Source of the DNA: Streptacidiphilus sp. PB12-B1b
GTDB lineage: Bacteria; Actinomycetota; Actinomycetes; Streptomycetales; Streptomycetaceae
Direction: 5' to 3'
DNA: 64,000 bases
NCBI RefSeq assembly: GCF_014084125.1
Contig: NZ_CP048405.1
Span: forward strand, 4,092,001 to 4,156,000
A program made the translations under genes and the position numbers. Positions 6,207 through 54,024 of the stretch are shown here, piece by piece. The notes beneath the pieces are model-generated. The model was not told the DNA's origin, searched no databases, and saw only the letters and a list, made by a program, of their open reading frames with translations. Position 1 is the stretch's first letter. Every line of letters starts with the position of its first letter.

Positions 6207-7652
6207 TTACGAGTTGGGGACGGTGTCGACGAAGTGGGTGCCGCTGCCGTAGTAGCCGGCGACCGTGCTGGTGACCTGGGCCGGGGTGAGCGCGCCGGAG
6301 TTGTTGAAGTAGACCCAGTTGACCTTCTCGTCCCAGGTGCGCGCCCCGCTGGCGCCGGAGAGGTCGATGAACCACTCGTTGCAGTCGATGGTCATGGGTT
6401 CGCGCGGGTAGTAGATGCCGGTGGTGCTGAAGTACTCCTGACCGTCGACGTAGTACGTCACGGTGCCGTCCTCGACCGTCATCTGCAGGGTGTGCCAGCC
6501 CTGGAGGCTGCTGATGACGTTGTGGGTCTGCCGGTTCATGGCGTCCGCGCTGTACCAGCTGGTGGTGTAGAGCGTCGGGCCGGGCGCGCCCCAACCGCCG
6601 TTCGGCAGGTACTCGTTGTCCAGTTCGCTGTAGAGCGAGTTGTCCGGGGAGATGGTGTAGAAGGTCTCGTTGACGTGGTCGCCGTTCTGCCCGGTGGTGG
6701 GCGCGTCGTTGAAGTAGACCCGGGCCGCGTAGGTACCCTCGAAGAACTTCTCGCTGGTGGTGTCGATTTCGGCCTGGGTGGTGTCGGTGCCGTCGGTGGT
6801 GGCCTCCAGTTGCATCACCTTGCCGCCCTGGGCGGTCGGGTCGCTGGGGAAGCTGATCGCGTTCTGGGTCCAGGTGTTGGCGATGCCCGGGCCGCCGGAG
6901 CCGGTGCGGATGGTCCAGTCGTGGGCGTTGAGGGCGGGGTCGGTGGGGCCGGTGTAGTGGAAGTCGTCGAACAGCGTGCCGCCGGACGGCGGGGCACCGG
7001 TGGGGCCGGTGGGCGTCGGCGTCGGTGTCGGCGAAGCGCCCCCGGTCGGCGTGGGCGTGGGGGTCGGTGAGGCGGTGCCGCCGTTCGGCTCGGTGCCCCA
7101 CGCCAGCGCGCCGTTCACATAGCCGGTGACCTGGCTGGAGGCGGTGTAGCCGGTGTCGGCGGCGTTGAACGAGTAGTCGTCGGCCTGGTTCACGTCCTGC
7201 CAGTCGCTGCGGTACAGCCGCAGTTCCAGGTCGCCGCTGTTGGCGCCGGGGGCCAGGCTGCCGGCGTCGGTGCCGAAGCTGATCTGGAGGTAGTGGTCGG
7301 CAGTGGCGGTGGGGTTCGCCAGTGCGACGACGGTACCGGTGATGTTGGAGCAGCCGGGCACGGCCCAGGCGCAGGCGAAGGTGTAGGGCACGGTGGTGTC
7401 GGCGCTGAAGTAGTAGCGCAGGGTGATCTGGCTGAGCGGGATGGCGGCCGAGGTGTTGTTGACGACCTCCAGCCAGGGTTCGGCCTCGTCGGCGGTGGCG
7501 GCCGTGCTGGTCTTGTAGAGCACGGTCAGGGCCGGGCCGGCCGCGTGCGCGGCGTGGACGGTGGGGTAGAGCGCGACGGCGGTGCAGGCCAGCGAGGCGG
7601 CTGCGAGCAGTGCGCGGCGCATCCCGCGTGGGCGGGGGTGGGCGTGCTCCAT
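6207..7652 (-). CDS. Secreted CBM3 plus GH16-like polysaccharide-binding/hydrolysing protein
   Basis: 481 residues. A signal peptide ends near residue 38 (VHAAHA). Residues 41-180 form a family 3 cellulose-binding module (LTVLYKT, WLEVVNNTSAAIPLSQITLRYYFS). Two PTPTPTPT linkers (about 195-220) lead to a concanavalin-like GH16 domain (225-481) with the E-x-D-x-E catalytic signature as ELDNE at 343-347. The ATG at 7652 is preceded by CAGGAGT. The protein probably binds cellulose-like material and cuts a beta-glucan or related polymer outside the cell. It is transcribed divergently from the sugar ABC operon, and the shared intergenic region carries paired operator-like repeats. Confidence 0.8.
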   Translation of the reverse strand: MEHAHPRPRGMRRALLAAASLACTAVALYPTVHAAHAAGPALTVLYKTSTAATADEAEPWLEVVNNTSAAIPLSQITLRYYFSADTTVPYTFACAWAVPGCSNITGTVVALANPTATADHYLQISFGTDAGSLAPGANSGDLELRLYRSDWQDVNQADDYSFNAADTGYTASSQVTGYVNGALAWGTEPNGGTASPTPTPTPTGGASPTPTPTPTGPTGAPPSGGTLFDDFHYTGPTDPALNAHDWTIRTGSGGPGIANTWTQNAISFPSDPTAQGGKVMQLEATTDGTDTTQAEIDTTSEKFFEGTYAARVYFNDAPTTGQNGDHVNETFYTISPDNSLYSELDNEYLPNGGWGAPGPTLYTTSWYSADAMNRQTHNVISSLQGWHTLQMTVEDGTVTYYVDGQEYFSTTGIYYPREPMTIDCNEWFIDLSGASGARTWDEKVNWVYFNNSGALTPAQVTSTVAGYYGSGTHFVDTVPNS

Positions 7653-7778
7653 GGGGACTCCTGTGGGGGAGGCGGGCCCGGCGTCGGCCGGGGCCGTGGG
7701 GGCGCGTCGGCGGCATCCGTGCTCGGGAGGGGCGGGGATCCGGCGCGGTACTGCGGCAGCATGGGACACCCACGATGG

Positions 7779-7939
7779 ATGACCACTGGTCATGTCACAT
7801 GTGCCGGTTGACGTACAAGGTGATTGCCCGAACTCCCCATGTCAAGGCCGACATCATGATCTGCTGTCGCTCGCACACCCCTTTTCTTCCCCTTCGCAGG
7901 TGGGGATGCAGATCGGGTTTCCACCCATTGACATGACCA
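7779..7939. promoter_or_regulatory. Divergent regulatory region with GntR-type operator-like repeats
   Basis: The 385-base gap between the GH16 gene and the ABC operon holds two copies of TGGTCATGTCA in opposite orientation, at 7787-7797 and 7929-7939 (as TGACATGACCA). The first is embedded in a perfect palindrome ATGACCA-C-TGGTCAT at 7779-7793. One copy sits toward each divergent gene. The motif resembles the TGGTC...GACCA boxes bound by DasR-like GntR/HutC regulators, and such a regulator is the last gene of the operon. A TTGACG hexamer at about 7808 may be a -35 element. No other gene is visible in the gap. Confidence 0.55.
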
Positions 7940-8037
7940 GAGGTTAGGTGGGAGCGTCTGCGTCCAGCAGCCGGCGCAGCAGCCCCGTCGGCCCTCCCGA
8001 GCACCCCCTCATCCCCCGGCCGTCGAGGAGAGTTCCC

Positions 8038-9339
8038 ATGCACACGAGATCCCTGGCCTGGTGCGCCTGTGCCGCCGCCGCGGCCCTGTCCCTCAGCGCC
8101 TGCGGCAGCGGTTCGACCGACCACGGCACGGCCGCCGCCAGGACCACCGGTCCCCGGACGCTGACGGTGTGGCTGATGGACGGCGACCTCAGCACCCAGG
8201 CCACCGACGCGATCAATGCCGCCTTCGAGAAGGCCACCGGCGCGAGGGTGGACATCCAGATCCAGCAGTGGGCGAACATCAACACCAAGATCAGCACCGC
8301 GCTGGCGCAGTCCGACCCGCCGGACGTGGTCGAGATCGGCAACACCGACGTCCCGCTCTTCGCCGCCACCGGCGCGCTCAGCGACATCACCGCCGACGAG
8401 TCCTCGATGTCGGCCGGGCAGACCTGGCTGCCGGGCCTGGTCGGACCGGCCACCGTGGACGGAAAGGTCTACGCCGCACCGCTGTTCGCCGGCAACCGCG
8501 CGGTGATCTACAACAAGAGGATCTGGGCCGCCGCCGGGGTCACCACCGCCCCGACCAGCTTCGCCCAGCTCACCGCCGACCTGGACCGGATCAGGGCGAA
8601 GAACCCCCAGCCGGGCTTCTCCGCCTTCAACTTCCCCGGCCAGTACTGGTACGGCGCGCTGCAGTTCGTCTGGGACGCGGGCGGCGAGCTGGCGACCGAG
8701 AGCAACGGCAGGTGGACCGGCGCACTGGGCACACCCGCCGCCCAGCAGGGGCTGCAGGCGTGGAAGTCCTTCCAGAACACCTACTCCTCCCCCGCCTCCC
8801 GCAACGTCGACACCAAGACCCCCGACCAGGCCGCGATGTTCGCCTCCGGCAAGACCGCCACCATCCTGGACACCAGCATCAACACCGTGCTCAAGGACAA
8901 CCCGGCGCTCAAGGGCCAGATCGGCACCTTTCCCTTCCCCGGCGCCGTTCCCGGCCACGACCAGCCGGTCTTCCTCGGCGGCTCCGACCTGGGCGTCGCC
9001 GCCAAGAGCCGGAACCAGGACCTCGCCGTGGCCTACCTGAAGGCGGCCACCAGCCCGGCCGTGCAGAGCAGCGCCATCGTCGGCATCGACGGCTGGACGC
9101 CGGTCTCCACCCAGCTCATCGACTCAACCCAGGGCAGTCTGCCGCCGACATCGGCCGCGTTCTTCGAAGCGGCCAAGGACAGCGTGTCCACCCCGGCGAC
9201 CCCCGGCTGGGCCACCATCGAGAGCGACACGTCGATCAACACCTTCTTCGCCGACATCGCCACCGGGCGCACATCGGTGGCCCAGGCCGCGGCCGGTTTC
9301 GACGCCCACCTCGACCAGGCCCTGAACGCCTCCCAGTGA
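8038..9339 (+). CDS. Sugar ABC transporter substrate-binding lipoprotein (DasA-like)
   Basis: 433 residues. A lipoprotein signal with lipobox LSAC places the lipidated cysteine at residue 22. The mature part is a family 1 extracellular solute-binding protein (LTVWLMDGD, AFEKATGARVDIQIQQW, DPPDVVEIGNTDV, YAAPLFAGNRAVIYNK). The ATG at 8038 follows GAGGAGAG and is preferred to an upstream in-frame GTG. Two permease genes, a GH20 hexosaminidase and a GntR regulator follow. The layout matches Streptomyces DasABC-type chitobiose/N-acetylglucosamine uptake, although the exact sugar is inferred. The operon has no ATPase, as expected if a shared MsiK-type ATPase is used. Confidence 0.85.
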   Translation: MHTRSLAWCACAAAAALSLSACGSGSTDHGTAAARTTGPRTLTVWLMDGDLSTQATDAINAAFEKATGARVDIQIQQWANINTKISTALAQSDPPDVVEIGNTDVPLFAATGALSDITADESSMSAGQTWLPGLVGPATVDGKVYAAPLFAGNRAVIYNKRIWAAAGVTTAPTSFAQLTADLDRIRAKNPQPGFSAFNFPGQYWYGALQFVWDAGGELATESNGRWTGALGTPAAQQGLQAWKSFQNTYSSPASRNVDTKTPDQAAMFASGKTATILDTSINTVLKDNPALKGQIGTFPFPGAVPGHDQPVFLGGSDLGVAAKSRNQDLAVAYLKAATSPAVQSSAIVGIDGWTPVSTQLIDSTQGSLPPTSAAFFEAAKDSVSTPATPGWATIESDTSINTFFADIATGRTSVAQAAAGFDAHLDQALNASQ

Positions 9340-9341
9340 CC

Positions 9342-10307
9342 ATGGCCACCTCCACCGCACCCCGCCCCGGGCGCGCCGCCGAGCGGGCGGCGGCCCCCGC
9401 CCGGCCCGCGCTGCGGCGCACCGGCGCGGCGTTCCCGTACCTGCTGCTGCTCCCCGCCGCCGCCGTCCTGGCCCTGGTCCTGGGCTATCCGCTGGCCCGG
9501 CTGGTGCTGATCTCCTTCCAGGACTACGGGCTGCGCGCCCTGTTCACCGGGGTCGTGCCCTGGGCCGGCTGGGCCAACTACCGCGCGGTGCTGTCCGATC
9601 CGGAGCTGGTCCCGGTGCTGCTGCGGACCGCCGGGTTCTGCGCCGCGCTGGTGGCCGGGACGCTGGTCGTCGGCATGCTGGTCGCGCTGATGCTGGGGGC
9701 CCTGGGCCGGCGGATGCGCACTGCGGTCACGCTGTGCCTGATCGCCGCCTGGGCCGTGCCCAACGTGGCCTCCACCCTGGTGTGGCAGTGGCTGTTCCAG
9801 CCCGTCTACGGGGTCGTCAACTGGCTGCTGACGCAGACCGGGCTCTTCGGCGACCTGACCCAGCACGACTGGACCACCTCGGCGGCCTCGGCCTTCCTGC
9901 TGGTGTGGCTGCTGGTGGTGTGGCAGTCCGTGCCGTTCGTGGCGCTGACCCTGCACGCCGGGCTGACGCAGATCCCGCGCGCCTACTACGAGGCCGCGGC
10001 GCTGGACGGCGCGGGCCCGGTGACCGTGTTCCGAGCGATCACCCTGCCGTTTCTGCGGCCGGTCCTGGGGCTGGTCGGCATCCTCTCGGTGATCTGGGAC
10101 TTCAACGTCTTCAACCAGATCTGGATCCTCACCCAGGGCGGCCCGAACCAGGGCACCACCACGCTCGGCATCTGGTCCTTCACCACGGCGTTCAGCAGCA
10201 ACTCGCTGGGCCAGGGCGCCGCGATCGCGGTCGTGTCGGTCCTGCTGCTGCTCGTCCTCACCGCCTTCTACGTGCGCCGGCTGGTGCGGTCGGGAGAAGA
10301 CCTGTGA
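9342..10307 (+). CDS. Sugar ABC transporter permease (MalF/DasB-like)
   Basis: 321 residues with six predicted transmembrane helices and the inner-membrane ATPase-contact EAA loop (YYEAAALDGAGPVTVFRAITLPFLRP). The N-terminus is a short basic/Ala-rich cytoplasmic extension. The ATG at 9342 lies 2 bases after the binding-protein stop; a GTG at 9336 overlapping that stop (GTGA) is a possible alternative start. It forms the translocation pore with the next gene product. Confidence 0.88.
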   Translation: MATSTAPRPGRAAERAAAPARPALRRTGAAFPYLLLLPAAAVLALVLGYPLARLVLISFQDYGLRALFTGVVPWAGWANYRAVLSDPELVPVLLRTAGFCAALVAGTLVVGMLVALMLGALGRRMRTAVTLCLIAAWAVPNVASTLVWQWLFQPVYGVVNWLLTQTGLFGDLTQHDWTTSAASAFLLVWLLVVWQSVPFVALTLHAGLTQIPRAYYEAAALDGAGPVTVFRAITLPFLRPVLGLVGILSVIWDFNVFNQIWILTQGGPNQGTTTLGIWSFTTAFSSNSLGQGAAIAVVSVLLLLVLTAFYVRRLVRSGEDL

Positions 10308-11140
10308 ACCCGAACCGACGGCCCGGCCACCGGCGGGCGCTGAACGCCGCCGCCGTGCTGTTCTGCCTCCTATGGGCGTTCCCCGTCTACTGGATGGTCG
10401 ACACCGCCTTCAAGCCCTACGGCGACATCCTCAGCACCACCCCGCGGTTCCTGCCGTTCCCGTTCACCCTGGCCAACTTCGCCGACGCGGTGCGCAAACC
10501 GGGGTTCCTGACCGACCTGGCCAACAGCGCCGTGGTGACCTGCGCGGTGGTGCTGCTCTCGATCGTGCTGGCGTTCTTCGCGGCCGTCGCGCTGGCCCGG
10601 TTCCGCTTCCTGGGGCGGCGCGGCTTCCTGATCGCCGTCCTGGTGGTGCAGATGGTCCCGCAACCGGCCCTGCTGATCCCGGTCTTCCTCGGCCTCAAGA
10701 GCGCGGACCTGCTGAACACCCTGGTCGGGCTGGTGCTGACGTACGTCGCCATGGTGCTGCCGTTCACCATCTGGACCCTGCGCGGGTTCCTGCACGGCAT
10801 TCCGGTGGAGCTGGAGGAGGCGGCGATGCTGGACGGCGCCGGCCGGATGACCGTCATCCGCAGCGTCCTGCTGCCGCTGGTCATGCCGGGGATCATCGCC
10901 ACCAGCGTCTTCGCCTTCATCACCGCGTGGAACGACTACCTGTTCGCCTATGTGCTGATGAAGGACCAGAGCCACTACACCCTGCCGGTCTGGCTGGTCT
11001 CCTTCAGCACCAGCACCGGCACCGACTACGGCGGACTGATCGCCGCCTCCACCCTGTTCGCCCTGCCCGTGGTGGTGTTCTTCATGCTCATCCAGCGCCG
11101 CCTGGTCGCCGGCATGACCGCCGGGGCCGTCAAGGACTGA
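10304..11140 (+). CDS. Sugar ABC transporter permease (MalG/DasC-like)
   Basis: 278 residues with six predicted helices and an EAA loop ELEEAAMLDGAGRMTVIRSVLLP near residue 170. The GTG start overlaps the previous stop by four bases (GTGA), so the two permeases are translationally coupled. It contains the AFNAWNDYLFA-like segment (FITAWNDYLFAYVL) typical of MalG-type subunits. It is followed 32 bases later by the hexosaminidase gene. Confidence 0.88.
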   Translation: MNPNRRPGHRRALNAAAVLFCLLWAFPVYWMVDTAFKPYGDILSTTPRFLPFPFTLANFADAVRKPGFLTDLANSAVVTCAVVLLSIVLAFFAAVALARFRFLGRRGFLIAVLVVQMVPQPALLIPVFLGLKSADLLNTLVGLVLTYVAMVLPFTIWTLRGFLHGIPVELEEAAMLDGAGRMTVIRSVLLPLVMPGIIATSVFAFITAWNDYLFAYVLMKDQSHYTLPVWLVSFSTSTGTDYGGLIAASTLFALPVVVFFMLIQRRLVAGMTAGAVKD

Positions 11141-11172
11141 CCCGCTCCCACCGCCAGCCCCGAAAGGCCACC

Positions 11173-12780
11173 GTGATCATCCCCCGTCCCACCGAGCTCA
11201 CCCCGCACCCCGGGCGGTTCGTCATCGGCCCGGATCTGCACCTGGACGTCGGGCCCGGGACCGAGGCGGCCGCTGAGCTGCTCGCCGGCTACCTCGGCCG
11301 CGGGCGGGCCCGCAGCGCCGCGGGCCCGCGGATCGCCCTGTCCCTCTCCCCCGCCGCGCCGGACTCGGCGGGCAACCAGGCGTACACCCTGAGCATCCGG
11401 CCCGACCTGGTCACCCTGGCCTCCCCCGGGGTGGCCGGGCTGCTGAACGGCGTGCAGACGCTGCGGCAGCTGCTGCCGCCGGCCGCCCTGGACCAGGCCG
11501 CCGCCCGCGCCGAGGACTGGTGGTGGCCCTGCGCGGACGTCCGGGACCGGCCCCGGCTGGCCTGGCGCGGCGCGCTGCTGGACGTCGCCCGGCACTTCCT
11601 GCCGCTGGAGTTCCTGTACCGCTTCGTCGACGAGCTGGCACTGCACAAGCTCAACGTGTTCCAGCTGCACCTGAACGACGACCAGGGCTGGCGGATCGAG
11701 ATCGACGGCCTGCCCCGGCTGACCGAGGTGGGCGCCTGGCGCGCCGAGTCGGCGCTCGGGCCGGGCGGCCCGGGCGGACCGGTGCCCGGCAACGGCACCC
11801 CGCACGGCGGCTACTACACCCAGGCCGAACTGCGCGGCCTGGTCTCCTACGCCCGGGCGCGCGGGGTCAGCGTGGTCCCGGAGATCACCATGCCCGGGCA
11901 CGCCCGCGCGGTGCTGGCCGCCTACCCCGGGCTGGGCAACCGCCCCGGGCACCCGCTGCCGGTGTGGACCAGCTGGGGCGTCAGCGAGGACATCCTGGCC
12001 GTCAGCGACCAGGCCCTGGACTTCTGCCGACAGGTCCTCGCGCAGACCATGGAGGTCTTCCCCTCCCGCTACGTGCACCTCGGCGGCGACGAGTGCCCCA
12101 CCGTGCAGTGGCAGCACAGCCCGCAGGCCCGCGACCGGGCCCGGCGGCTGGGCCTGGCCTCGCCCGCCGAGCTGCACGGCTGGTTCCTGGGCCGGATGCG
12201 GGACTTCCTGGCCGGGTCCGGACGCCGGGCCGTGGCCTGGGACGAGAAGGGCTACGCCGCAGGCACGGTGCCGTCCGGCATCGTCCTCGGCGCCTGGCGC
12301 GACCCGGCCCACGGCGCGCACGCGGTGGCGCGCGGCCACCAGGTGGTGATGGCGCCGCACCGGTCGACGTACTTCGACTACCCGCAGAGCGACGACCCCG
12401 GGGAGCCGCAGGGCCAGCCCGGAGGAACGGTGCGGCTGGCCGACGTCTACGCGTTCGACCCGCTGGCCGGTCCGACGACCGGTCCGCTGCCCTCCGCCGA
12501 CCCGGCCGCCGACAGCGCACCGGGCGTGCTGGGCACCCAGGCGCAGCTGTGGACCGAGTACGCGCCCACGCCCGAGCACGTCACCTACCTCGCCTACCCC
12601 CGGCTGTGCGCGCTGGCCGAGGTCGCCTGGAGCGAGGGCCGACGGGACTTCACCGAGTTCCAGGGCAGGCTGGCGCACCACCGCAAGCGGCTCGGCGCGC
12701 TGGGCAGCGCGCCCCGGCGTCCCCGCCCGCCGGGCGACCGATCGCCCGCACTCCGACACCCTGGGACGATGGACACGTGA
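11173..12780 (+). CDS. GH20 beta-N-acetylhexosaminidase
   Basis: 535 residues. An N-terminal alpha/beta GH20b domain (residues 1-125) precedes the GH20 barrel. Visible signatures are NVFQLHLNDDQGWRIEI, PEITMPGHARA and HLGGDECP, whose Asp-Glu pair is catalytic, with later AVAWDEKGY and LGTQAQLWTEY. There is no signal peptide, so it probably cleaves imported N-acetylhexosamine oligomers in the cytoplasm, like DasD-type enzymes. The GTG start follows GAAAGG. Its stop overlaps the GntR start (GTGA), placing uptake, degradation and regulation in one operon. Confidence 0.9.
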   Translation: MIIPRPTELTPHPGRFVIGPDLHLDVGPGTEAAAELLAGYLGRGRARSAAGPRIALSLSPAAPDSAGNQAYTLSIRPDLVTLASPGVAGLLNGVQTLRQLLPPAALDQAAARAEDWWWPCADVRDRPRLAWRGALLDVARHFLPLEFLYRFVDELALHKLNVFQLHLNDDQGWRIEIDGLPRLTEVGAWRAESALGPGGPGGPVPGNGTPHGGYYTQAELRGLVSYARARGVSVVPEITMPGHARAVLAAYPGLGNRPGHPLPVWTSWGVSEDILAVSDQALDFCRQVLAQTMEVFPSRYVHLGGDECPTVQWQHSPQARDRARRLGLASPAELHGWFLGRMRDFLAGSGRRAVAWDEKGYAAGTVPSGIVLGAWRDPAHGAHAVARGHQVVMAPHRSTYFDYPQSDDPGEPQGQPGGTVRLADVYAFDPLAGPTTGPLPSADPAADSAPGVLGTQAQLWTEYAPTPEHVTYLAYPRLCALAEVAWSEGRRDFTEFQGRLAHHRKRLGALGSAPRRPRPPGDRSPALRHPGTMDT

Positions 12781-25560: not shown

Positions 25561-26352
25561 TCAGGGCCAGGTGAACGTGGCCAGGACGTGGCCGACGGCG
25601 TCGTAGACGGTGGCGGTGGCGCTCGCCGTCGAGGCGCCGGCGCTGCCGGAAACCGGCGTCCAGACGTAGCCGCCCGCGTAACCGGGCTGTCCGGCCAGCG
25701 ACACCACGGTCACCGGGTACACCGTCGCGCCGACCTTCATCGACATCCGTGCCACCCGGCCCGGCCCGATGTAGAGCGGCACATACAGGGTTCCCTTGCT
25801 GTCGCCGTCGGTGCGCCAGCCGACCGTGCCGGAGGCCTGGTTGCCGGCGACGGCGCTGTTGCAGCCGCCGCCGTCCTTGCCCCCCACGCACATCTGTGCG
25901 CCCGTGAGCGTCAGCCACACACCGTGCCCCACCTGCACCCGCCGACCGGACGGCACCACCTGGACCGGCAACGCCCCCGAGCCCGAACCCGACTGCAAGC
26001 CCGAGCCCGGCCCGGAACCGGACGGCGGCCCGGACACGGCACCCGACGGAGACCCCGAGGGAACCCCCGGCGGTGATGCCGGGGCGGTCCCCCCGCCGGT
26101 GCGTCCGGCCCCGGCCGGGCCGACCGCGCCGGCGCCCGGCACCACCTGCGTTCCGGTGCGCAGCACCCCCGTGGCCGCCACCGGAACCACGACCGCCACC
26201 GCCGTGGCGACCGCCGCCGCCAAGGCCCTGCCCCGGACCTGCCGCCGCTGCCGCCGCGCCCGTGCCCGGATCTGCGCCGACGGCCAGGCGGGCGGCTCCA
26301 GGCTCTCGGCCGTTCGGCGCAGCGCCAGCCTCAGCTCCTCCTCGAAACTCAT
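25561..26352 (-). CDS. Probable membrane anti-sigma partner with extracytoplasmic sensor-like domain
   Basis: 263 residues. The N-terminal 45 residues are charged and cytoplasmic (SFEEELRLALRRTAESLEPP). A transmembrane helix follows at about 45-65, then a Gly/Pro/Ser linker, then an extracytoplasmic domain at about 130-263 with GHGVWLTLTGAQMC and LAGQPGYAGGYVWTP. Its ATG overlaps the sigma-factor stop by four bases. This coupling and topology fit an anti-sigma or co-regulator, though no zinc-finger motif is present. The extracytoplasmic domain is homologous to the next secreted protein upstream. Confidence 0.65.
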   Translation of the reverse strand: MSFEEELRLALRRTAESLEPPAWPSAQIRARARRQRRQVRGRALAAAVATAVAVVVPVAATGVLRTGTQVVPGAGAVGPAGAGRTGGGTAPASPPGVPSGSPSGAVSGPPSGSGPGSGLQSGSGSGALPVQVVPSGRRVQVGHGVWLTLTGAQMCVGGKDGGGCNSAVAGNQASGTVGWRTDGDSKGTLYVPLYIGPGRVARMSMKVGATVYPVTVVSLAGQPGYAGGYVWTPVSGSAGASTASATATVYDAVGHVLATFTWP

Positions 26353-26885
26353 CGTGGGCCTGCTCCTTCCAGATCCGCCGCCGGCAGGTGGGACGCCAGG
26401 GCCGGGTGCGTGCGCAGTTTCTGCAGCCCCCGGCTGGCCTGGCTTTTCACATTGCCCGGCGAGCAGCCGAGCACGTCCGCGACCTGGCGTTCGCTCATGT
26501 CCTCCCAGAAGCGCAGGACCACGACCGCGCGTTGCCGCGGCGGCAGCCCGGCCAGTGCCTGCAGCAGCAGCGAGCGGGTCTCGGGTCCGGCGTCCCGGTT
26601 CTCGTCGGCCCGGTCGGGCGGGGTGGGCGTCAGCAGGTGCAGCACCCGCTGACGCCGGTAGCGGCTGCGGTTGTTGTTGACCATGGCCCGGTGGACGTAG
26701 GCGTCCGGGTCGTCCAGCCGCCTGATGCCGGACCAGTTCCGGAACACCTTCGCCAGGGTCGCCTGGACCAGGTCCTCCGCCTCATGGTGGTCCCCCGTCA
26801 ACAGGTATGCGGTACGCACCAGCCGGCGCCAGCGCGCCCCCGCGTAGGACTCGAAGTCCAGCTCCGACCACTCGGTCTCCCCCAC
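26349..26885 (-). CDS. SigE-family ECF RNA polymerase sigma factor
   Basis: 178 residues. Region 2 is FESYAGARWRRLVRTAYLLTGDHHEAEDLVQATLAKVFRNW, with region 2.3-2.4 in DDPDAYVHRAMVNNNRSRYRR. Region 4 is ALAGLPPRQRAVVVLRFWEDMSERQVADVLGCSPGNVKSQASRGLQKLR. The GTG at 26885 follows GGAGGGG. It is translationally coupled to the membrane gene downstream. It probably transcribes its own operon and genes for the secreted paralogue. Confidence 0.88.
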   Translation of the reverse strand: MGETEWSELDFESYAGARWRRLVRTAYLLTGDHHEAEDLVQATLAKVFRNWSGIRRLDDPDAYVHRAMVNNNRSRYRRQRVLHLLTPTPPDRADENRDAGPETRSLLLQALAGLPPRQRAVVVLRFWEDMSERQVADVLGCSPGNVKSQASRGLQKLRTHPALASHLPAADLEGAGPR

Positions 26886-26934
26886 CGCATCCCCTCCGCT
26901 GCCCGGCCCGCCGCCTGTCCCCTGTCCCCGCCGG

Positions 26935-27462
26935 TCAGAACTGGGCCAGGACCCCGCCGGACGCGTCCCGCACGACCACTCCGGCCGTGGCGTCGGCGGG
27001 GGCCCAGCCGTAGCCGACGGCATAGCCGGGGTGTCCGGCCAGGGTGACGACCTGCAGGCCGTCGCTCTGCTTGCCCTCGGTGAGGGTCATCCGGGCGACC
27101 GTGCCGGAGCCCAGGTAGAGCGCCTGGTAGAGGGTAGGGCCGTTGGCGAGCCCGGTGGTCCGCAGGCCCACCGAGTCCGGTGCCTGGTTGCCGTTGACGA
27201 CGCTGTCGCACTCGGTGGGGTTCTGGACGCCGCCCTGGCAGACCTCGGTGGCGGTGAGCGTCAGCCACAGGCCGTGGCCCAGGGCCACGCGCTGTCCGGG
27301 CGCGACCACGCGCACGGACGCCGAGGCCGACGCTGTTCCCCGGCCCGCTGCGGCGGCCGGGAGCGCCGCTGTGCCCACGGTCACGGCCGCCAGCAGCCCG
27401 GCGGCGGCCAGCGTCCCCCCGACGCGCCTGGCTGTGGGCAGGCCGGTCCTGTTCACGATCAT
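26935..27462 (-). CDS. Secreted paralogue of the anti-sigma sensor domain
   Basis: 175 residues with a signal peptide (ALPAAAAG, cleavage near residue 40). The mature domain shares with the membrane protein at 25561 the pattern GHGxWLTLT, one Cys, NGNQAxxSVGxRT, GxGxVARM and LAGxPGYAxGY. The ATG at 27462 starts just upstream of the signal. It lies 49 bases upstream of the sigma gene on the same strand, so it may be the first gene of a three-gene unit. Function is unknown; it could be a soluble decoy or ligand partner. Confidence 0.65.
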   Translation of the reverse strand: MIVNRTGLPTARRVGGTLAAAGLLAAVTVGTAALPAAAAGRGTASASASVRVVAPGQRVALGHGLWLTLTATEVCQGGVQNPTECDSVVNGNQAPDSVGLRTTGLANGPTLYQALYLGSGTVARMTLTEGKQSDGLQVVTLAGHPGYAVGYGWAPADATAGVVVRDASGGVLAQF

Positions 27463-37963: not shown

Positions 37964-38727
37964 GGTGCGGGTGCCGGTGCGGGGGCGGTGACGGTGACCA
38001 CCACCGGCAGGTCGGCTCCGCCGCGCAGCCGTTCGAGCCACTGGACGACGGTGGCGGCGACGCTGCGGTGGGAGATGTCATTGAGCGCGTCGTGCCGACC
38101 GTCCGCGACGGTGGCCAGCACCGCCTGCGGCAGCCGGGCGGCCAGCCGCCGGGCTTCGGCGACCGGGCTGACCGGGTCGGCCTCGCCGTGCAGCAGCAGC
38201 ACCGGCAGGCTGCCCAGCTCCGCGGCGGCGCGTTCGGCGGCGTCGGCGAGCGCCGCCGGGACGGGCTCGGCCAGGCTGCCGCGGGTGAAGCCGGCGTCCG
38301 CGTCCAGCCGTCCACGGTGGGTCGGGCAGGCAGTGCGGGCGCCGAGTTCGCTGTCCCAATCGGTGAGGGGCGCGCCGTCGGCATCCAGGGCGGTGCCGGC
38401 CAGCAGCAGCGCATCGGCGTGCAGGGCGGGGTACACGGCGGCGGCGAGCGCCTGCAGCGCGCCGGTGTCGGAGCCGGCCAGCACCAGCGGGACGGCCGCG
38501 CCCTGGGCGATCCGGGCGATGTCGGCGGCGGTGCGCTCCCCGTCCTGGCCGGGTGCGGTGTCCAGGACGTGCACCACGTAGGCGTCGGCGGCGAGCCGGC
38601 GGCCGAACCGCTCGTACACCCCGGGGGTCTCGCCCCGGCCGGGCAGCAGGATCAGGGTTCCGCGCTGCAGCAGGCCCTCGGGCGGGTACCAGCTCGCGGT
38701 GCGGGTGGCGGCGGGCGCGGCGGTCAC
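37957..38727 (-). CDS. Alpha/beta hydrolase with unusual Asp in the nucleophile elbow
   Basis: 256 residues. RGTLILLPGRGETPGVYERFG provides the oxyanion region. The elbow VLAGSDTGALQAL places Asp87 where a serine usually sits (G-x-Nuc-x-G). HGEADPVSP and GRHDALNDISHRS supply the acid and the histidine. Asp nucleophiles are known in haloalkane dehalogenases and epoxide hydrolases. The GTG start overlaps the upstream monooxygenase stop (GTGA). In this locus it probably processes an organosulfur intermediate; its reaction is not known. Confidence 0.75.
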   Translation of the reverse strand: MTAAPAATRTASWYPPEGLLQRGTLILLPGRGETPGVYERFGRRLAADAYVVHVLDTAPGQDGERTAADIARIAQGAAVPLVLAGSDTGALQALAAAVYPALHADALLLAGTALDADGAPLTDWDSELGARTACPTHRGRLDADAGFTRGSLAEPVPAALADAAERAAAELGSLPVLLLHGEADPVSPVAEARRLAARLPQAVLATVADGRHDALNDISHRSVAATVVQWLERLRGGADLPVVVTVTAPAPAPAPA

Positions 38728-39869
38728 CGGGCACCGCCGGCCACCGCGGCGAGCGGGGCCGCGGCCGCCTCGCGGCGGGCGAGTTCGGCGCCGACCAGCG
38801 GCAGCAGGTGCCTGCCGTAGTCGACGGCGTCGTCCAGCGGGTCGTAGCCGCGGATGAGCAGGGTGGTCACGCCGATGTCGACGTAGTCCAGCAGCGCTTG
38901 GGCGACCGTCTCGGGGGTGCCGACCAGCGCGGTGGAGTTGCCGGCCGCGCCGGTGGCGGCGGCGGGCGCGGTCCACAGCGCCCGGTCGTGCCGGTCGGCC
39001 TTGGCGGCGGCGGCCAGCAGCCGCTGCGATCCGGCGTTCTGCGGCTGCGCCCCGGGGCCGACCGGCAGGATCGCCCGGCGGCGCCCGAACAGCGGGTTGT
39101 TCGCGCCGTGGCCCCGGATGGTGTCCAGGATGCCGTGGGCCCGCTCCCAGGCCGCCTCCTCGGTGGCGCCGAGGATCGGCCGGAAGGAGACGCTGATGCG
39201 CGGCGGCGTGGTCCTGCCCGCCGCCTCGGCGGCGGCGCGGACCGAGGCGATCTGCTGGGCGGTCTCGGCCAGCGGCTCGCCCCACAGCGCGAACACGTCG
39301 GCGTGCTTGCCGCCGACCCGGTAGGCGGCCTCGGAGGAACCGCCGAAGTACAGCGGTATCCGCGGCTGCTGGGCGGGCCTGACCTCGGCGTGGAAGTCGT
39401 CGAAGCGGTAGTAGCGACCGTCCAGGCCGAAGGGGGCGTCCTCGGTCCAGGCGCGCTTGAGCACGTCCAGGTACTCGTCGGTGCGGTCGTAGCGCTCGTC
39501 CTTGGGCAGGTGGTCGCCGTCGCGGCGCTGTTCGGCGTCGTGGCCGCCGGTGATGATGTGGACGGCGACCCGGCCGCCGGAGAACTGGTCCAGGGTGGCG
39601 AAGGTGCGGGCCGCGAGCGTCGGGGCGACGAAGCCGGGCCGGTGGGCGACGAGCAGCCCGAGCCGCTCGGTGTGGGCGGCGACGTGCGCGGCGACCTGGG
39701 TGCCGTCGGGGCTGCTGGAGCCGTAGCCGATCAGGATCCGGTCGAATCCGGCCTCCTCGTGGGCCCGGGCGAAGCGGCGGGTGTAGTCGGGGTCGACGAC
39801 GGGGCCGCTCGGTGGACGGGTCTCGGAGCCGTCGCGGGTGCCGATCATGCCGATGAATTCGACGCTCAT
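38724..39869 (-). CDS. LLM-class FMNH2-dependent monooxygenase (SsuD-like)
   Basis: 381 residues. It starts MSVEFIGMIGTRDGSE and has FARAHEEAGFDRILIGYGSSSPDG, HRPGFVAPTLAARTFATLDQFSGGRVAVHIITGG and YRTDEYL-type blocks of alkanesulfonate monooxygenases, ending DVGVTTLLIRGYDPLDD-like (DIGVTTLLIRGYDPLDDAVDYG). It is closely related to the enzyme at 41159. The gap to the acyl-CoA dehydrogenase gene upstream is 3 bases, and the stop overlaps the hydrolase start. Confidence 0.88.
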   Translation of the reverse strand: MSVEFIGMIGTRDGSETRPPSGPVVDPDYTRRFARAHEEAGFDRILIGYGSSSPDGTQVAAHVAAHTERLGLLVAHRPGFVAPTLAARTFATLDQFSGGRVAVHIITGGHDAEQRRDGDHLPKDERYDRTDEYLDVLKRAWTEDAPFGLDGRYYRFDDFHAEVRPAQQPRIPLYFGGSSEAAYRVGGKHADVFALWGEPLAETAQQIASVRAAAEAAGRTTPPRISVSFRPILGATEEAAWERAHGILDTIRGHGANNPLFGRRRAILPVGPGAQPQNAGSQRLLAAAAKADRHDRALWTAPAAATGAAGNSTALVGTPETVAQALLDYVDIGVTTLLIRGYDPLDDAVDYGRHLLPLVGAELARREAAAAPLAAVAGGAR

Positions 39870-50615: not shown

Positions 50616-50933
50616 TCACGGCCGGGTCGGGGCTGCGCCGAGGTCCAGTCGCTCCAGCAGTTGCCACAGCACGGCCCGGGCGTCGGTGTCGCGCCCGCCG
50701 GCGACCTGCTCGATCAGCGAGAGCTCGGCGGACATGGAGACCACCAGCCGCGCCGCCGAGGCGGGGGCCGGGCCCGCCTGGGCGGTGACGCCGGTGGCCG
50801 GGGTGGTCGGACCGGGGCGCAGCAGCGCCGCTGCGCCGAGCGCGGCCAGGCAGGCCAGCACCGCGCCGACGGCCACGGCGGCGGCCCGGGTACGCGACCG
50901 GCCCGCCCGGCGGACGCGGCGGCGGCCGGTCAT
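50616..50933 (-). CDS. Small single-pass membrane protein, coupled to thaumatin-like gene
   Basis: 105 residues: a very basic cytoplasmic head (GRRRVRRAGRSRTR), one transmembrane helix (about 17-38), and an outside part of about 65 residues ending in a helical ALIEQVAGG-like region (SLIEQVAGGRDTDARAVLWQLLERLD). Its ATG overlaps the stop of the thaumatin-like gene by four bases. Family unknown. Confidence 0.6.
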   Translation of the reverse strand: MTGRRRVRRAGRSRTRAAAVAVGAVLACLAALGAAALLRPGPTTPATGVTAQAGPAPASAARLVVSMSAELSLIEQVAGGRDTDARAVLWQLLERLDLGAAPTRP

Positions 50934-51955
50934 CGGCTGACCCCGAAGGTGATCCGGTAGTCGCAGCCGCCGGAGCAGGTGTAGACGCTGCTCTGGTCGT
51001 CGTAGACGTAGGAGTAGCCGGTGGGTTCGGCCCGCTTGAAGATCGCGGCGTAGTCCACCGGCCACCGGGCGGGCAGGCAGGTCGCCCGGGTGCTCCAGGC
51101 TCCCCGGCAGCAGTACTGGTCGGTGTTGAAGACCGTGCACGGGCCGAGGCAGCCGACGACGCTGCCGCCGACCCTGTCCTGCAGCGCCGACGGGCAGGTG
51201 GCCAGCAGGTCGTGGGTGCAGCCCGCCGGTATGCAGCCGTCCGCAGAGACCTTGTCCGGGGTGGTGCCGCCGGTGTGGTTGATCCACATCGGCAGGTTGA
51301 AGCCGTCCAGGTTGACGTCGTAGAAGTCCATGCCGCCCCAGGCGTTCAGGTCGAACTCGGCGAGCGTCTCCGGCGCGGTGCTGCCCGCCGTGCCGCACTG
51401 GAAGCGGCCGTCGCAGTCGCCGGTGACGCAGTGGCCCTGCCCGGCCGCGTCGAAGGAGCAGCCAGTGCGGCCCCACAGCCGGCCGTTCCAGCCGTCCGGC
51501 ATCAGCAGGCTGACGCTGGCGCCGGGCGGGAGCACCCAACCGGTGCGGGCCAGCGGCTCCTTGGGGTCGGCCTGGGCAGCCGGCCACACCGTCTGCGCGG
51601 TGGCGTTGACGAAGGTGACCACCCGCTGACCGGCGGCGGGCACGGGCGCGGCGGGCGCGGCGGAGGTCCGGTGCCCGGCCGGGGCGGGGGCGTGCGTCGC
51701 CGACGCCGCTGCCGAGGCGTGGGCGCTGCCGTGCGCGCTCGCGCTGCCGCGCGGGGCGGCGGTTCGGGCGGCGGCCGTACCGGCCGACGTCGCCGGTGCG
51801 CCGCTCACCGCCGACGGTGCGGCCTGGGCCGCTCCCTGGGTGCGGCCCGCGCCGAACAGCCTCCCGGGCAGGAACGCCGCGAGGGCCACCAGCGCGACCA
51901 CCCCCACCACCACGGCCACCTGCCTCCTGTGCGGACCCCGCCTGCGATGACGCAT
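50930..51955 (-). CDS. Thaumatin-like protein, membrane-anchored or secreted
   Basis: 341 residues. A basic N-terminus and one helix (about 12-33) lead to a low-complexity Ser/Ala/His linker (about 40-105), then a Cys-rich thaumatin-like domain. TFVNATAQTVWPAA, GWVLPPGASVSLLMPDGWNGRLWGRTGC, CVTGDCDGRFQCG and CSGGCDYRITF are typical. Thaumatin-like proteins can bind or cleave beta-1,3-glucans. The ATG at 51955 follows GGGGAG. It diverges from the sigma-GH128 fusion, and both face outward from a perfect inverted repeat. Confidence 0.82.
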   Translation of the reverse strand: MRHRRRGPHRRQVAVVVGVVALVALAAFLPGRLFGAGRTQGAAQAAPSAVSGAPATSAGTAAARTAAPRGSASAHGSAHASAAASATHAPAPAGHRTSAAPAAPVPAAGQRVVTFVNATAQTVWPAAQADPKEPLARTGWVLPPGASVSLLMPDGWNGRLWGRTGCSFDAAGQGHCVTGDCDGRFQCGTAGSTAPETLAEFDLNAWGGMDFYDVNLDGFNLPMWINHTGGTTPDKVSADGCIPAGCTHDLLATCPSALQDRVGGSVVGCLGPCTVFNTDQYCCRGAWSTRATCLPARWPVDYAAIFKRAEPTGYSYVYDDQSSVYTCSGGCDYRITFGVSR

Positions 51956-52038
51956 CTGTGCCACTCCCCTGGAACGATCGGCGCACCGGCCCGGGCGGCC
52001 GACGGCTCCAGCAGGGGAGTTGGGGGCGCCCGGCAGCG

Positions 52039-52083
52039 GATAACAGAAACTTCTCCGGACCGGCCCGCGCATTTTCTGTTATC
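52039..52083. promoter_or_regulatory. Perfect 11-bp inverted repeat between thaumatin and sigma-GH128 genes
   Basis: GATAACAGAAA (52039-52049) and TTTCTGTTATC (52073-52083) are exact complements with 23 bases between. Read outward, each gene has TTTCTGTTATC about 70-85 bases before its start codon. The AT-rich arms stand out in a GC-rich gap. They may be matching promoter elements for the sigma factor encoded here, or operator arms. Confidence 0.65.
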
Positions 52084-52155
52084 GGCCCCGCCGGGGGCGC
52101 ACTCCTCAGCAGGAAGTACATTCGGCGTGTCAGCGGGGCAGGGAGCGAGACCACC

Positions 52156-54024
52156 ATGCACATCTCCGGGAGCAGGGACCTTCCGCGCGGCACCGTGTCC
52201 GCCGCGCAGGGCGGCGACGCCGCCGCGCTGGACGAGGTCGTCTCGTACACGCTGCCGCTGGTCTACAACATCGTCGGCCACGCGCTGCGCGGGCACCACG
52301 ACGTGGACGACCTGGTGCAGGAGACCATGCTGGGCATCGTCCGCGGCCTGCCCGGGCTGCGCGAGCCGGAGGCGTTCCGCTCCTGGGCCGTCGCTGTGAC
52401 GGTACGTCAGGTCCGTTGGCACCGGGCAGCGCTGGCCAATCGGCCCGCGAGCACGGCGCTGGACGAGGGGGTCGAGGCCGCCGATCCGCAGGCCGACTTC
52501 GTGGACCTCTGCATCCTGCGGTTGGGCCTCAGCGGACAGCGCTTGGAGGTGGCCGAGGCCACCCGCTGGCTGGACTCCGACGATCAGGAGCTGCTGGCGC
52601 TGTGGTGGCTGGAGGCCGCGGGGAGCCTGGAGCGCGGTGAGTTGGCCGCCGCCCTGGCACTCCCCTCCACCCATGCGGCGGTGCGGGTGCAGCGGATGAA
52701 GCAGCAGTTGGACACCGCGCGCGGCGTGGTGCGCGCGCTCGGCCGCAGCCCCCGGTGCCCGGGCCTGGCCGGGCTGGCCGAGGACTGGGACGGCGTTCCC
52801 GCGCCGTTGTGGCGCAAGCGCTTCGCCCGGCATCTGCGCGGCTGCGCCGACTGCGCGGCCTGCGCGCAGGATCTGGTTCCGGCCGGGGCGCTGCTGGTGG
52901 GGATGGGCCTGGTGCCGCTGCCCGCCGGTCTCGCGGCCGCCCCGTCCCGGCCCGGGGTGCGGGCGGTCCGGCGCAGGCGGGCCGGGCGGAGCCGGGTTCG
53001 GCGCGGCGGTCGGCTGTACGCCGCCATGGGCAGCGGCCTGGCGGTGGCGGTGGTGGCCGCCGCGAGTGCGCTGGCGCTCGGCGGTGGCCGTGCCGCGACG
53101 CCGACCGCACGCGCGCTGCCGCTGCCGGCAGTCACCACCGCCGGCGCCGCGCCCGCCCCGTCCTCCCCGGCAGCCGTGCACACCGCGACGCCCACGCCCA
53201 CGCCGAGGCCGACGGCCTCCCGCACCCGGAAGGCGACGATGCCTCCGGCGGCGCCCGCCGGTCGGCCGGCCGCGCCGGTGGTGGCCGTCAAGAAGGGCGA
53301 CGCCACCTGGAGTTTCGACGGCGTCACCACCGCGCTGCGGGCCTCGGGGGCGTCCTGGTACTACACCTGGGGGCCGGACCACTCCGGCATCCAGAGTCCG
53401 CCCGGCGTGCAGTTCGTGCCGATGATCTGGGGCCCGGCCGACGTCACCAACGGTTCGCTCCAGCTGGCGAAGCAGCAGGGCAGCAGCGTGCTGCTGGGCT
53501 TCAACGAGCCCGACATGGCGAGCCAGTCGAACATGACGCCGCGACAGGCCCTGTCCCTGTGGCCGACGTTGATGGCGACCGGGTTGCAGCTGGGCAGTCC
53601 GGCGGTGGCCACCGGCGGTGCCACGCCGGGCGGTTGGCTGGACCAGTTCATGCAGGGTGCGCGCAGTCGGGGCTATCGCGTCGACTTCATCACCCTGCAC
53701 TGGTACGGCGGGGACTTCGTCACGGCCGACGCGGTCAGCCAGCTCGAGGGCTACCTTCAGGCCGTGCACGCCCGCTACGGGCTGCCGGTCTGGCTCACCG
53801 AGTACGCGCTGACCAACTTCGCCGACGGCGGCGCGAGTTACCCCACCGCGCAGCAGCAGGCCGCGTTCGTCACCGCCTCCACAGCGATGCTGCAGCGCCT
53901 GCCGTGGGTGCAGCGCTACGCGTGGTTCGCGTTGCCGGACACGACGCCGGGCCAGACCGGGCTGTTCCTGCCCGGCGGCGCGCCCGACAGCGTCGGCGCG
54001 GCCTGGGCCGCGGCCGGCCGCTGA
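52156..54024 (+). CDS. ECF sigma factor fused to zinc-finger motif, membrane helix and GH128-like glycosidase domain
   Basis: 622 residues in one uninterrupted frame. Region 2 (about 20-95) includes ALRGHHDVDDLVQETMLGIVRGLPGL. A region-4-like part (about 150-200) follows, somewhat degenerate. H226-x3-C230-x2-C233 matches the zinc-finger anti-sigma signature (HLRGCADC). A transmembrane helix lies at 288-312, then a Pro/Thr linker, then a GH128-like domain (about 370-622) with WYYTWGPD, GFNEPDMA (Glu451) and WLTEYAL (Glu549) as probable catalytic pair. Sigma factor, its restraint and an outside sugar-acting domain are thus in one chain. ATG preceded by GGGAGCGAG. Groups of actinobacterial ECF factors with fused outside domains are known, so homologues probably exist. 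Confidence 0.85.
   Translation: MHISGSRDLPRGTVSAAQGGDAAALDEVVSYTLPLVYNIVGHALRGHHDVDDLVQETMLGIVRGLPGLREPEAFRSWAVAVTVRQVRWHRAALANRPASTALDEGVEAADPQADFVDLCILRLGLSGQRLEVAEATRWLDSDDQELLALWWLEAAGSLERGELAAALALPSTHAAVRVQRMKQQLDTARGVVRALGRSPRCPGLAGLAEDWDGVPAPLWRKRFARHLRGCADCAACAQDLVPAGALLVGMGLVPLPAGLAAAPSRPGVRAVRRRRAGRSRVRRGGRLYAAMGSGLAVAVVAAASALALGGGRAATPTARALPLPAVTTAGAAPAPSSPAAVHTATPTPTPRPTASRTRKATMPPAAPAGRPAAPVVAVKKGDATWSFDGVTTALRASGASWYYTWGPDHSGIQSPPGVQFVPMIWGPADVTNGSLQLAKQQGSSVLLGFNEPDMASQSNMTPRQALSLWPTLMATGLQLGSPAVATGGATPGGWLDQFMQGARSRGYRVDFITLHWYGGDFVTADAVSQLEGYLQAVHARYGLPVWLTEYALTNFADGGASYPTAQQQAAFVTASTAMLQRLPWVQRYAWFALPDTTPGQTGLFLPGGAPDSVGAAWAAAGR

What the first reader, a model, noticed from the sequence alone, without database searches (positions are those of the whole stretch)
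52156..54024. Single-chain sigma factor, zinc-finger, membrane helix and GH128-like domain
The frame shows sigma region 2, a degenerate region 4, an HxxxCxxC motif as in anti-sigma zinc fingers, one transmembrane helix, and an outside domain with GFNEPD and WLTEYAL glutamates. A glycosidase or sugar sensor is thus wired directly to a transcription factor, which needs release from the membrane to work. Related ECF groups with fused outside domains have been described, but this combination, next to a thaumatin-like gene, looks like a self-contained cell-wall or fungal-glucan sensing system.
Basis: partly seen in the sequence, partly recalled or inferred. Interest (0 to 1): 0.88.

Follow-up and report, generated by a model that had tools for sequence, protein, structure and literature searches.

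The report
Membrane-bound sigma factor with glucanase sensor
A bacterium carries one protein that joins a gene-switching factor, a built-in inhibitor, a membrane anchor and an outside beta-1,3-glucanase-like domain; its type was already known, but comparison of genomes suggests which DNA switch it uses and that it turns on secreted glucan-active proteins.

Summary
The 622-aa protein at 52156-54024 has an ECF sigma factor (sigma2 and a genuine sigma4), a four-ligand ZAS-type zinc finger, one transmembrane helix, a Pro-rich linker and a GH128 subgroup I domain (58% identical to the glucanase AmGH128_I). Catalytic residues and HxxxCxxC are invariant in the 120 listed homologues; it is no sequencing artefact. 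The architecture is in print: ECF52/ECF53 are sigma factors fused to anti-sigma and membrane parts, some with predicted glycosyl hydrolase domains. What I add is a circuit. A bipartite promoter motif, GTTATC-N16/17-GTCTCC, lies upstream of 62 of 73 family genes. In this genome TTTNNGTTATC occurs four times: before this gene, before the divergent thaumatin-like gene, before the one paralogue (same sigma chassis, CAP ectodomain), and one probable chance site. In 19 genomes whose only detected chassis is this type, the strict motif marks 10 sigma genes, 9 secreted GH128/DUF1996/thaumatin genes and 6 others. Best reading: a one-protein, autoregulated receptor and transcription factor for beta-1,3-glucan, working like sigma-I6/RsgI6. 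Signal, proteolysis and enzyme activity are inferred, not shown.

The parts
52156..54024 (+). Fused ECF sigma factor - ZAS - transmembrane - GH128 protein, 622 aa (P0001)
52243..52416 (+). Sigma region 2 (residues 30-87)
   Evidence: Pfam PF04542 4.2e-11; 66 of 66 aligned relatives
52534..52743 (+). Sigma region 4 (residues 127-196, helices)
   Evidence: model helices; profile match to full-length ECF sigma factors over 7-186; Pfam region 4 model misses it
52756..52854 (+). ZAS-type zinc finger C201-x24-H226-x3-C230-x2-C233
   Evidence: invariant residues; Pfam zf-HC2 only 0.092
53023..53079 (+). Predicted transmembrane helix (residues 290-308), Arg-rich stretch before it
   Evidence: hydropathy 1.99; 186 of 195 proteins have a window of 1.6 or more there
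53080..53274 (+). Pro/Ala/Thr-rich outside linker
   Evidence: sequence; pLDDT under 50 at 248-362 and 364-376
53275..54018 (+). GH128 subgroup I domain; catalytic candidates E451 and E549
   Evidence: PDB 6uaq 5e-83; Foldseek TM (by target) 0.96, rmsd 1.3, 58% id
52072..52105 (+). Predicted ECF promoter of the sigma gene: TTTTCTGTTATC-N16-CACTCC (GTTATC 52078-52083, CACTCC 52100-52105)
   Evidence: its -10 half has 2 mismatches to the family GTCTCC
52016..52049 (-). Predicted promoter of the thaumatin-like gene: TTTCTGTTATC-N17-AACTCC, inverted with respect to the sigma promoter
   Evidence: -10 half has 2 mismatches to GTCTCC
50930..51955 (-). Thaumatin-like protein with N-terminal anchor or signal (341 aa from the likely start 51955; longest frame to 52072), predicted target
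   Evidence: PF00314 7.2e-65; 14 Cys in the domain; thaumatin gene as direct divergent neighbour in 9 of 70 analysed loci

Best explanation
The protein is a one-component membrane receptor and transcription factor. At rest the ZAS finger holds sigma2/sigma4 at the membrane. The outside GH128 domain meets beta-1,3-glucan, most likely from fungal walls; binding or cleavage leads to proteolysis in or near the membrane helix and removal of the finger. Freed sigma then directs RNA polymerase to TTTNNGTTATC-N16/17-(G)TCTCC promoters: its own gene, and a small set of secreted glucan-active proteins, here the divergent thaumatin-like gene and the CAP-type paralogue. The sensor is thus kin to enzymes that it induces. 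Shown by computation: domains, invariant catalytic and zinc residues, conservation of the promoter-like motif, and its place in front of the proposed target genes. Inferred: signal identity, inhibition by the finger, proteolysis, direct recognition of the motif by this sigma factor.
For: Domains and structure. Of 195 proteins gathered, the 170 picked as GH128 (by W[FY]YTW or [FY]NEP) all keep the N-E, HWY and second E pattern, and 194 of 195 have HxxxCxxC. Motif, at most one mismatch per half, upstream of 62 of 73 sigma genes against 22 of 1460 mononucleotide shuffles and 1 of 144 coding windows. Own genome: TTTNNGTTATC at 4 places, 3 of them before this gene, the thaumatin gene and the paralogue. 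32 genomes with the family: 41 strict matches against 6 for the reversed pattern; downstream 15 sigma chassis genes, 13 GH16/GH128/DUF1996/thaumatin genes, 2 alginate-lyase-like or beta-helix genes, 3 SARP-like regulators, 1 unknown, 7 without a plausible target. Co-occurrence: motif in 14 of 24 genomes with the chassis and 20 of 272 without, Fisher p 4e-9. Within one genome the fused GH128 domain is 64-71% identical to the motif-preceded secreted GH128 enzyme in 5 of 5 genomes compared.
Against: The window's own -10 halves (CACTCC, AACTCC) differ from GTCTCC at two positions, so the window is among the 11 of 73 that miss the motif as defined, and the strict pattern finds nothing in its genome. 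Genomes without the chassis also exceed the reversed pattern (23 sites against 8 by my count of the rows), so part of the motif's excess is not due to this family. The Fisher test is corrected neither for genome size nor for kinship. 7 of 41 sites have no plausible target. The +2-subsite tyrosine of AmGH128_I (Y137) is Thr486 here and varies widely in the family, so activity may differ. zf-HC2 scores below its cut-off. The whole-chain model has pTM 0.48 and does not settle how the domains pack. No experiment.
Confidence: 0.6

Rival explanations
1. The GH128 domain is not a sensor of foreign glucan but a tethered enzyme or an envelope-stress reporter: the sigma part answers to damage of the bacterium's own envelope, and the glucanase-like domain is an effector displayed on the surface.
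For: The catalytic pattern is kept in 170 of 170, as in a working enzyme; the best studied ECF52 relative, SCO4117, controls development and antibiotics (PMC5826349, passages).
Against: Apart from sigma genes, most motif-preceded genes in GH128-type genomes encode secreted glucan-active or DUF1996 or thaumatin proteins: 13 of 26 non-sigma sites, 7 of the 26 having no plausible target. In the second set, six of seven genomes with lyase or beta-helix targets are those where I found CAP or X ectodomains (the seventh, G191, was not resolved).
Confidence: 0.2
2. The inverted TTTCTGTTATC pair is an operator for another DNA-binding regulator, not the promoter of this sigma factor.
For: The two halves within 52036-52086 form a 78% complementary inverted repeat, as operators often do; SARP-type regulators lie behind the motif in some genomes; the motif is also in excess in genomes without the chassis.
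Against: The motif has two halves at a spacing of 16 or 17, typical of ECF promoters (recalled); a divergent copy is present in only 17 of 73, while the copy that points at the sigma gene is present in 62; it co-occurs with the chassis.
Confidence: 0.12
3. The whole thing is simply another ECF53 protein with nothing new to say.
For: ECF53 is described as a fused sigma factor with zinc finger and membrane parts, some with predicted glycosyl hydrolase domains (PMC8999054; PMC10766802).
Against: In the passages that I could read, no promoter, target set or GH family for ECF53 is given; here these become testable.
Confidence: 0.3
4. A sequencing error joins two separate genes.
For: None found.
Against: All 120 listed hits carry both domains; in 70 of the 72 fetched loci with a sigma part the frame runs on for 520 aa or more (the other two are L009, where my start call failed, and L088, 427 aa).
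Confidence: 0.01

Closest known systems
ECF53 (and ECF52) sigma factors of Actinobacteria
   Same: ECF sigma factor fused C-terminally to a zinc finger, one to two membrane helices and a long regulatory extension; some with predicted glycosyl hydrolase domains (PMC8999054 and PMC10766802, passages). Actinobacterial.
   Different: I could not run the ECF53 models or compare the reference WP_030276194.1. Promoter, targets, GH128 subgroup and ectodomain exchange are not in the passages that I read.
SCO4117 of Streptomyces coelicolor (ECF52)
   Same: Sigma, zinc finger, membrane helix, Pro-rich stretch, carbohydrate domain; autoregulation proposed (PMC5826349, passages).
   Different: Its ectodomain is a carbohydrate-binding module (smart00776), not GH128; its proposed motif CSGYN-17-SRHA is unlike GTTATC-N16/17-GTCTCC; it controls development and secondary metabolism.
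Sigma-I6 / RsgI6 of Clostridium thermocellum
   Same: A glycoside hydrolase family ectodomain (GH10) on a membrane anti-sigma factor, autoregulation, and a regulon with enzymes of the same family: Xyn10D is 57% identical to the RsgI6 GH10 module (PMC4711584, passages). Here the fused GH128 is 64-71% identical to a motif-preceded secreted GH128 of the same genome in 5 of 5 genomes compared.
   Different: Sigma and anti-sigma are separate proteins there; sigma-I is not an ECF factor (recalled); RsgI6 GH10 activity is reported as very low; its RseP and ClpXP processing is reported from experiments (PMC12203970, passages).
AmGH128_I of Amycolatopsis mediterranei (GH128 subgroup I endo-beta-1,3-glucanase, PDB 6uaq)
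   Same: 58% identity, TM 0.96 by target length, both catalytic glutamates.
   Different: Solved as an isolated domain; its native context was not found here. Y137 is Thr486 here.
IutY of Pseudomonas putida
   Same: Single-chain sigma plus anti-sigma, release by proteolysis reported (PMC8999054, passage).
   Different: Responds to a siderophore; no glycosidase domain named there.

Membership tests
ECF sigma factors | sigma2 and sigma4 only | tested here: met
   PF04542; profile covers 7-186 of full-length ECF sigma factors
ECF sigma factors | binds core polymerase and initiates at -35/-10 promoters | not testable with these tools
   only a conserved promoter-like motif upstream
ECF53 | C-terminal fusion with zinc finger and transmembrane part in an actinobacterium | tested here: met
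   the 80 loci are all actinobacterial by record title
ECF53 | score against the ECF53 subgroup model | not testable with these tools
ECF52 | carbohydrate-binding module at the C-terminus | tested here: not met
   only Glyco_hydro_cc is found there in the window protein
ZAS anti-sigma domain | Cys/His ligand set ending HxxxCxxC | tested here: met
   C201 H226 C230 C233 invariant
ZAS anti-sigma domain | Pfam zf-HC2 above cut-off | tested here: not met
   13.3 bits against 22.2; 2 of 66 relatives at E 0.1
GH128 subgroup I | fold and both catalytic glutamates | tested here: met
GH128 subgroup I | endo-beta-1,3-glucanase activity | not testable with these tools
GH128 subgroup I | aromatic +2 subsite residue as in AmGH128_I (Y137) | tested here: not met
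   Thr486 in the window protein; not known to define the subgroup
Sigma-I/RsgI | separate anti-sigma protein with an RsgI N-terminal domain | tested here: not met
   single chain; no such Pfam hit
Thaumatin family (neighbour) | full-length PF00314 match | tested here: met
   profile 1-208 of 209, 7.2e-65

The most novel reading that the evidence does not exclude
A bacterial antifungal sensing circuit in one polypeptide type: an exchangeable family of membrane-tethered sigma factors whose outside domain is a still active copy of the enzyme class that the sigma factor induces (GH128 sensor, GH128/GH16/thaumatin-like output). In this genome the two receptors (beta-1,3-glucanase type and CAP type) and the output (thaumatin type) match three plant pathogenesis-related classes, PR-2, PR-1 and PR-5 (recalled), all tied by one promoter element.
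Probability: 0.35. Interest if true: 0.82.

Novelty: new member of a known kind. Interest (0 to 1): 0.62.

Why it matters
In the review passage that I read, experimental validation of the glycosyl-hydrolase-bearing ECF52/53 proteins had yet to be performed. The promoter, the invariant catalytic site and the small target sets proposed here turn that into a reporter experiment. If right, it is an independent, single-chain parallel to the cellulosome sigma-I/RsgI sensors, and it ties the unexplained domain DUF1996 and bacterial thaumatin-like proteins to glucan or fungus recognition.

Tried and rejected
Viral origin: the search of viral contigs gave only one distant sigma match. GTTGTC as -35 variant: 130 sites against 20 for the reversed pattern in the 32 genomes (my count of the rows); the sites were not fetched, many are probably coding, so they enter no count. 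Fourth own-genome TTTNNGTTATC site at 6942996: no -10 half at the right spacing, judged chance. Own-genome sites 1808604 and 3288185 of the looser pattern: no TTT box, and the proteins that I called there have no convincing Pfam hit. Split ancestor (separate anti-sigma with GH128): 13 loci were read; five (L103, L105, L112, L114, L122) were read on the wrong strand and say nothing; of the rest, L098, L100, L113, L081, L084 and L085 have no HxxxCxxC in frame before the GH domain, so no split form was found, on a small sample. The tree of GH domains intermingles fused and free copies, but my 'free' label wrongly holds about six loci (L027, L031, L036 and L088 have a sigma part; L112 and L122 are identical to L031 rows), so I draw no conclusion from its counts. 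The sigma tree (84 rows, the GH128 rows subsampled from 171) needs at least three ectodomain changes, but its deep split is weak (support 52). Pfam region 4 as the test for sigma4: rejected as too narrow after the profile search. My gene caller is home-made; gene starts, and the 'inside an ORF' flags of L133 and L166, are rough.

Paper checks: searches. In the held library GH128 together with sigma factor gave one listing, a metatranscriptome study (listing only), and thaumatin-like with Streptomyces, sigma factor and glucan gave one spruce pathogen study (listing only). The papers taken to be Huang 2015, Casas-Pastor 2021 and the GH128 structure paper of Santos 2020 were asked for by DOI from memory and are not held, so absence from print is not shown. 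PMC8103513 (passages) has no occurrence of ECF52 or ECF53. All papers cited were seen as passages, none in full.

Full report
What is there. The frame 52156-54024 is a 622-aa protein. From the inside out: sigma2 (Pfam 4.2e-11), sigma4 (not seen by Pfam in this protein, but covered by a family profile that runs over residues 7-186 of full-length ECF structures such as 6in7 and 1or7), a C201/H226/C230/C233 zinc-finger ligand set, a hydrophobic helix at 290-308, a Pro-rich linker, and a GH128 domain that matches the AmGH128_I endo-beta-1,3-glucanase with TM 0.96 (by target length) and 58% identity. For comparison, an ordinary ECF gene in the same window (26349-26885) hits Pfam region 4 at 1.6e-18, so the fused protein's sigma4 is diverged, though present.

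It is a real, conserved family. A search returned 2934 proteins at E 0.001 (not all need carry both domains); the 120 listed all carry both. In these 120 the residues N450, E451, H515, Y517, E549 and H226, C230, C233 never vary. In the 195 proteins gathered from both searches, the 170 picked as GH128 by W[FY]YTW or [FY]NEP all keep the catalytic pattern, and 194 keep HxxxCxxC. One caution: the +2-subsite Tyr137 of AmGH128_I is Thr486 here and varies. AmGH128_I itself could not be placed in its genome: 25 of 394 class genomes matched its sequence, best identity 70%.

One chassis, several ectodomains. A search with residues 1-245 alone listed 120 proteins: 95 with Glyco_hydro_cc, 8 with CAP, 1 with an alginate lyase domain, 1 with another domain (PF22842), 15 with no second Pfam domain (my count).

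A promoter. Of 80 loci from named actinobacterial genomes or MAGs (the best 80 of 444), 72 contain the sigma part. With the window these give 73 upstream regions; 62 hold GTTATC-N16/17-GTCTCC with at most one mismatch per half (15 to 19 allowed; spacer 16 in 45 and 17 in 17); controls gave 22 of 1460 mononucleotide shuffles and 1 of 144 coding windows. The 11 without it are L015, L018, L023, L024, L028, L031, L033, L047, L050, L088 and the window itself, whose -10 halves read CACTCC and AACTCC. Seventeen of 73 have a copy pointing away; at 8 of these the divergent neighbour is a thaumatin gene, at 6 a protein with the F5/8C-type start (three of the six scanned: F5/8C-DUF1996), 3 unresolved. 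Thaumatin genes lie in 13 of 70 analysed loci, as direct divergent neighbour in 9.

The window's own genome (7.67 Mb, one contig). GATAACAGAAA occurs exactly twice, both in the 52036-52086 inverted repeat. TTTNNGTTATC occurs four times: thaumatin promoter, sigma promoter, 4906106 in front of the only paralogue, and 6942996 without a -10 half. The paralogue shares the sigma-ZAS part (61% identity over 13-243) but ends in a CAP domain, 8.8e-14.

Targets in other genomes. The strict motif gives 41 sites in 32 genomes that carry the family, against 6 for the reversed pattern. The surroundings of all 41 were fetched. 15 lie before sigma chassis genes (L123, L124, L126, L131, L135, L136, L138, L139, L140, L144, L148, L152, L153, L154, L161). 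13 lie before GH16 (L127, L130, L133), F5/8C-GH128 (L146, L147, L150, L159), DUF1996 (L129, 444 bases away by my caller, L145, L149, L151, L158) and thaumatin (L156) genes. 2 lie before an alginate-lyase-like (L142) and a beta-helix gene (L143), both in one Streptomyces (G397) with a second chassis gene directly behind the lyase gene. 3 lie before SARP/BTAD-type regulators (L128, L132 scanned; L134 by likeness). 1 is unknown (L141); 7 have no plausible target (L125, L137, L155, L157, L160, L162, L183). In the 19 of these 32 genomes with a single chassis gene at E 1e-30, the 25 sites divide into 10 sigma, 9 GH128/DUF1996/thaumatin and 6 without a plausible target.

Sensor and enzyme. In the five genomes where I had both, the fused GH128 domain and the motif-preceded secreted GH128 are 64, 64, 64, 71 and 65% identical.

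Co-occurrence. In 296 genomes of the class, 24 have the chassis at E 1e-30. The motif is in 14 of these 24 and in 20 of the 272 without, Fisher p 4e-9, uncorrected for genome size and kinship. By my count of the rows, carriers have 21 sites against 0 for the reversed pattern, non-carriers 23 against 8: the motif is in some excess without the chassis too. Of the 21 sites in carriers, 9 lie by coordinates just before a chassis gene and 12 were fetched: 4 alginate-lyase-like, 5 beta-helix (two scanned, three by likeness), 1 DUF1996, 1 GH128, 1 transporter-type lipoprotein. Of the 23 sites in non-carriers, 8 were fetched; none precedes a secreted enzyme.

Ectodomain and target. Of 31 chassis places, 20 were fetched and 17 sigma genes recovered: 9 CAP, 5 X (an unnamed domain resembling P0185), 1 GH128, 2 unassigned; L191, L200 and L203 were not recovered. 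The lyase and beta-helix targets lie in seven genomes: in six I found CAP and/or X ectodomains, the seventh (G191) is unresolved; the DUF1996 and GH128 targets of this set lie in G275, where I found a GH128 chassis. G397 of the first set has both a GH128 chassis and a second chassis whose ectodomain is cut off at the contig end.

How it works, most likely. By analogy with IutY and with RseP/ClpXP processing of RsgI6 (PMC8999054, PMC12203970, passages), a glucan signal at the GH128 domain leads to cleavage in the membrane helix and trimming of the ZAS part, freeing sigma. A sensor resembling the induced enzyme is the arrangement seen in RsgI6 GH10 and Xyn10D (PMC4711584, passages). None of these steps is shown here. 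That thaumatin-like proteins can bind or cleave beta-1,3-glucan, and that CAP, beta-1,3-glucanase and thaumatin proteins are plant defence classes PR-1, PR-2 and PR-5, is recalled and not from a call.

Known or new. The kind is known: ECF52/ECF53 fusions, some with predicted glycosyl hydrolase domains. Membership in ECF53 proper is untested for lack of its model. Not met in the papers held here (searches; key classification papers not held) are the promoter, the target sets, the GH128-I assignment with invariant catalysis, and the exchange of ectodomains on one sigma chassis.

Noticed in passing
L145, L149, L151, L158, L173, L129 (downstream of the motif): Secreted DUF1996 proteins, mostly with F5/8 type C domains, sit behind the same promoter motif; a domain of unknown function thereby gets a lead to beta-glucan.
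   Followed up: partly
P0161, P0167, P0175, P0185; L142, L167: An unnamed ectodomain of about 220 aa without Pfam hit on the same sigma chassis; in L142 and L167 a chassis gene lies directly behind an alginate-lyase-like gene that has the motif upstream.
   Followed up: partly
L164, L166, L169, L171, L172, L143: Long secreted proteins of unknown function, beta-helix-like by weak PATR hits in three of them, behind the motif.
   Followed up: no
L128, L132, L134: SARP/BTAD-type transcription activators behind the same motif in Actinoplanes relatives: a possible regulatory relay.
   Followed up: no
L041, L044, L045, L052-L054 and other Actinoplanes-type loci: The divergent neighbour of the fused sigma gene looks like a small RsbW-type ATP-binding protein (judged by sequence only).
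   Followed up: no
L081, L084, L085 (L082, L083 similar): Micromonospora carry GH128 domains behind a hydrophobic helix and Pro-rich linker, without sigma or zinc finger in frame.
   Followed up: no
L088: Fused sigma gene of Phytohabitans suffuscus whose frame from the sigma start closes after 427 aa, before the full length: a possible frameshift in the record.
   Followed up: no
window 25561-27315 (-): An ordinary ECF sigma gene (26349-26885) lies between two small proteins that look alike and have no Pfam hit.
   Followed up: no
window 6207-12780: CBM3 protein, sugar ABC transporter genes (by sequence) and a GH20 gene; a CBM3 protein and similar-looking neighbours lie directly beside the fused sigma gene in L035.
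   Followed up: no
window 988-2040 (+): Protein matching GH71 and GH99 families about equally.
   Followed up: no
window 38919-39009: ARAGORN calls a tRNA-Ala inside a long coding frame (38724-39869); probably spurious.
   Followed up: no
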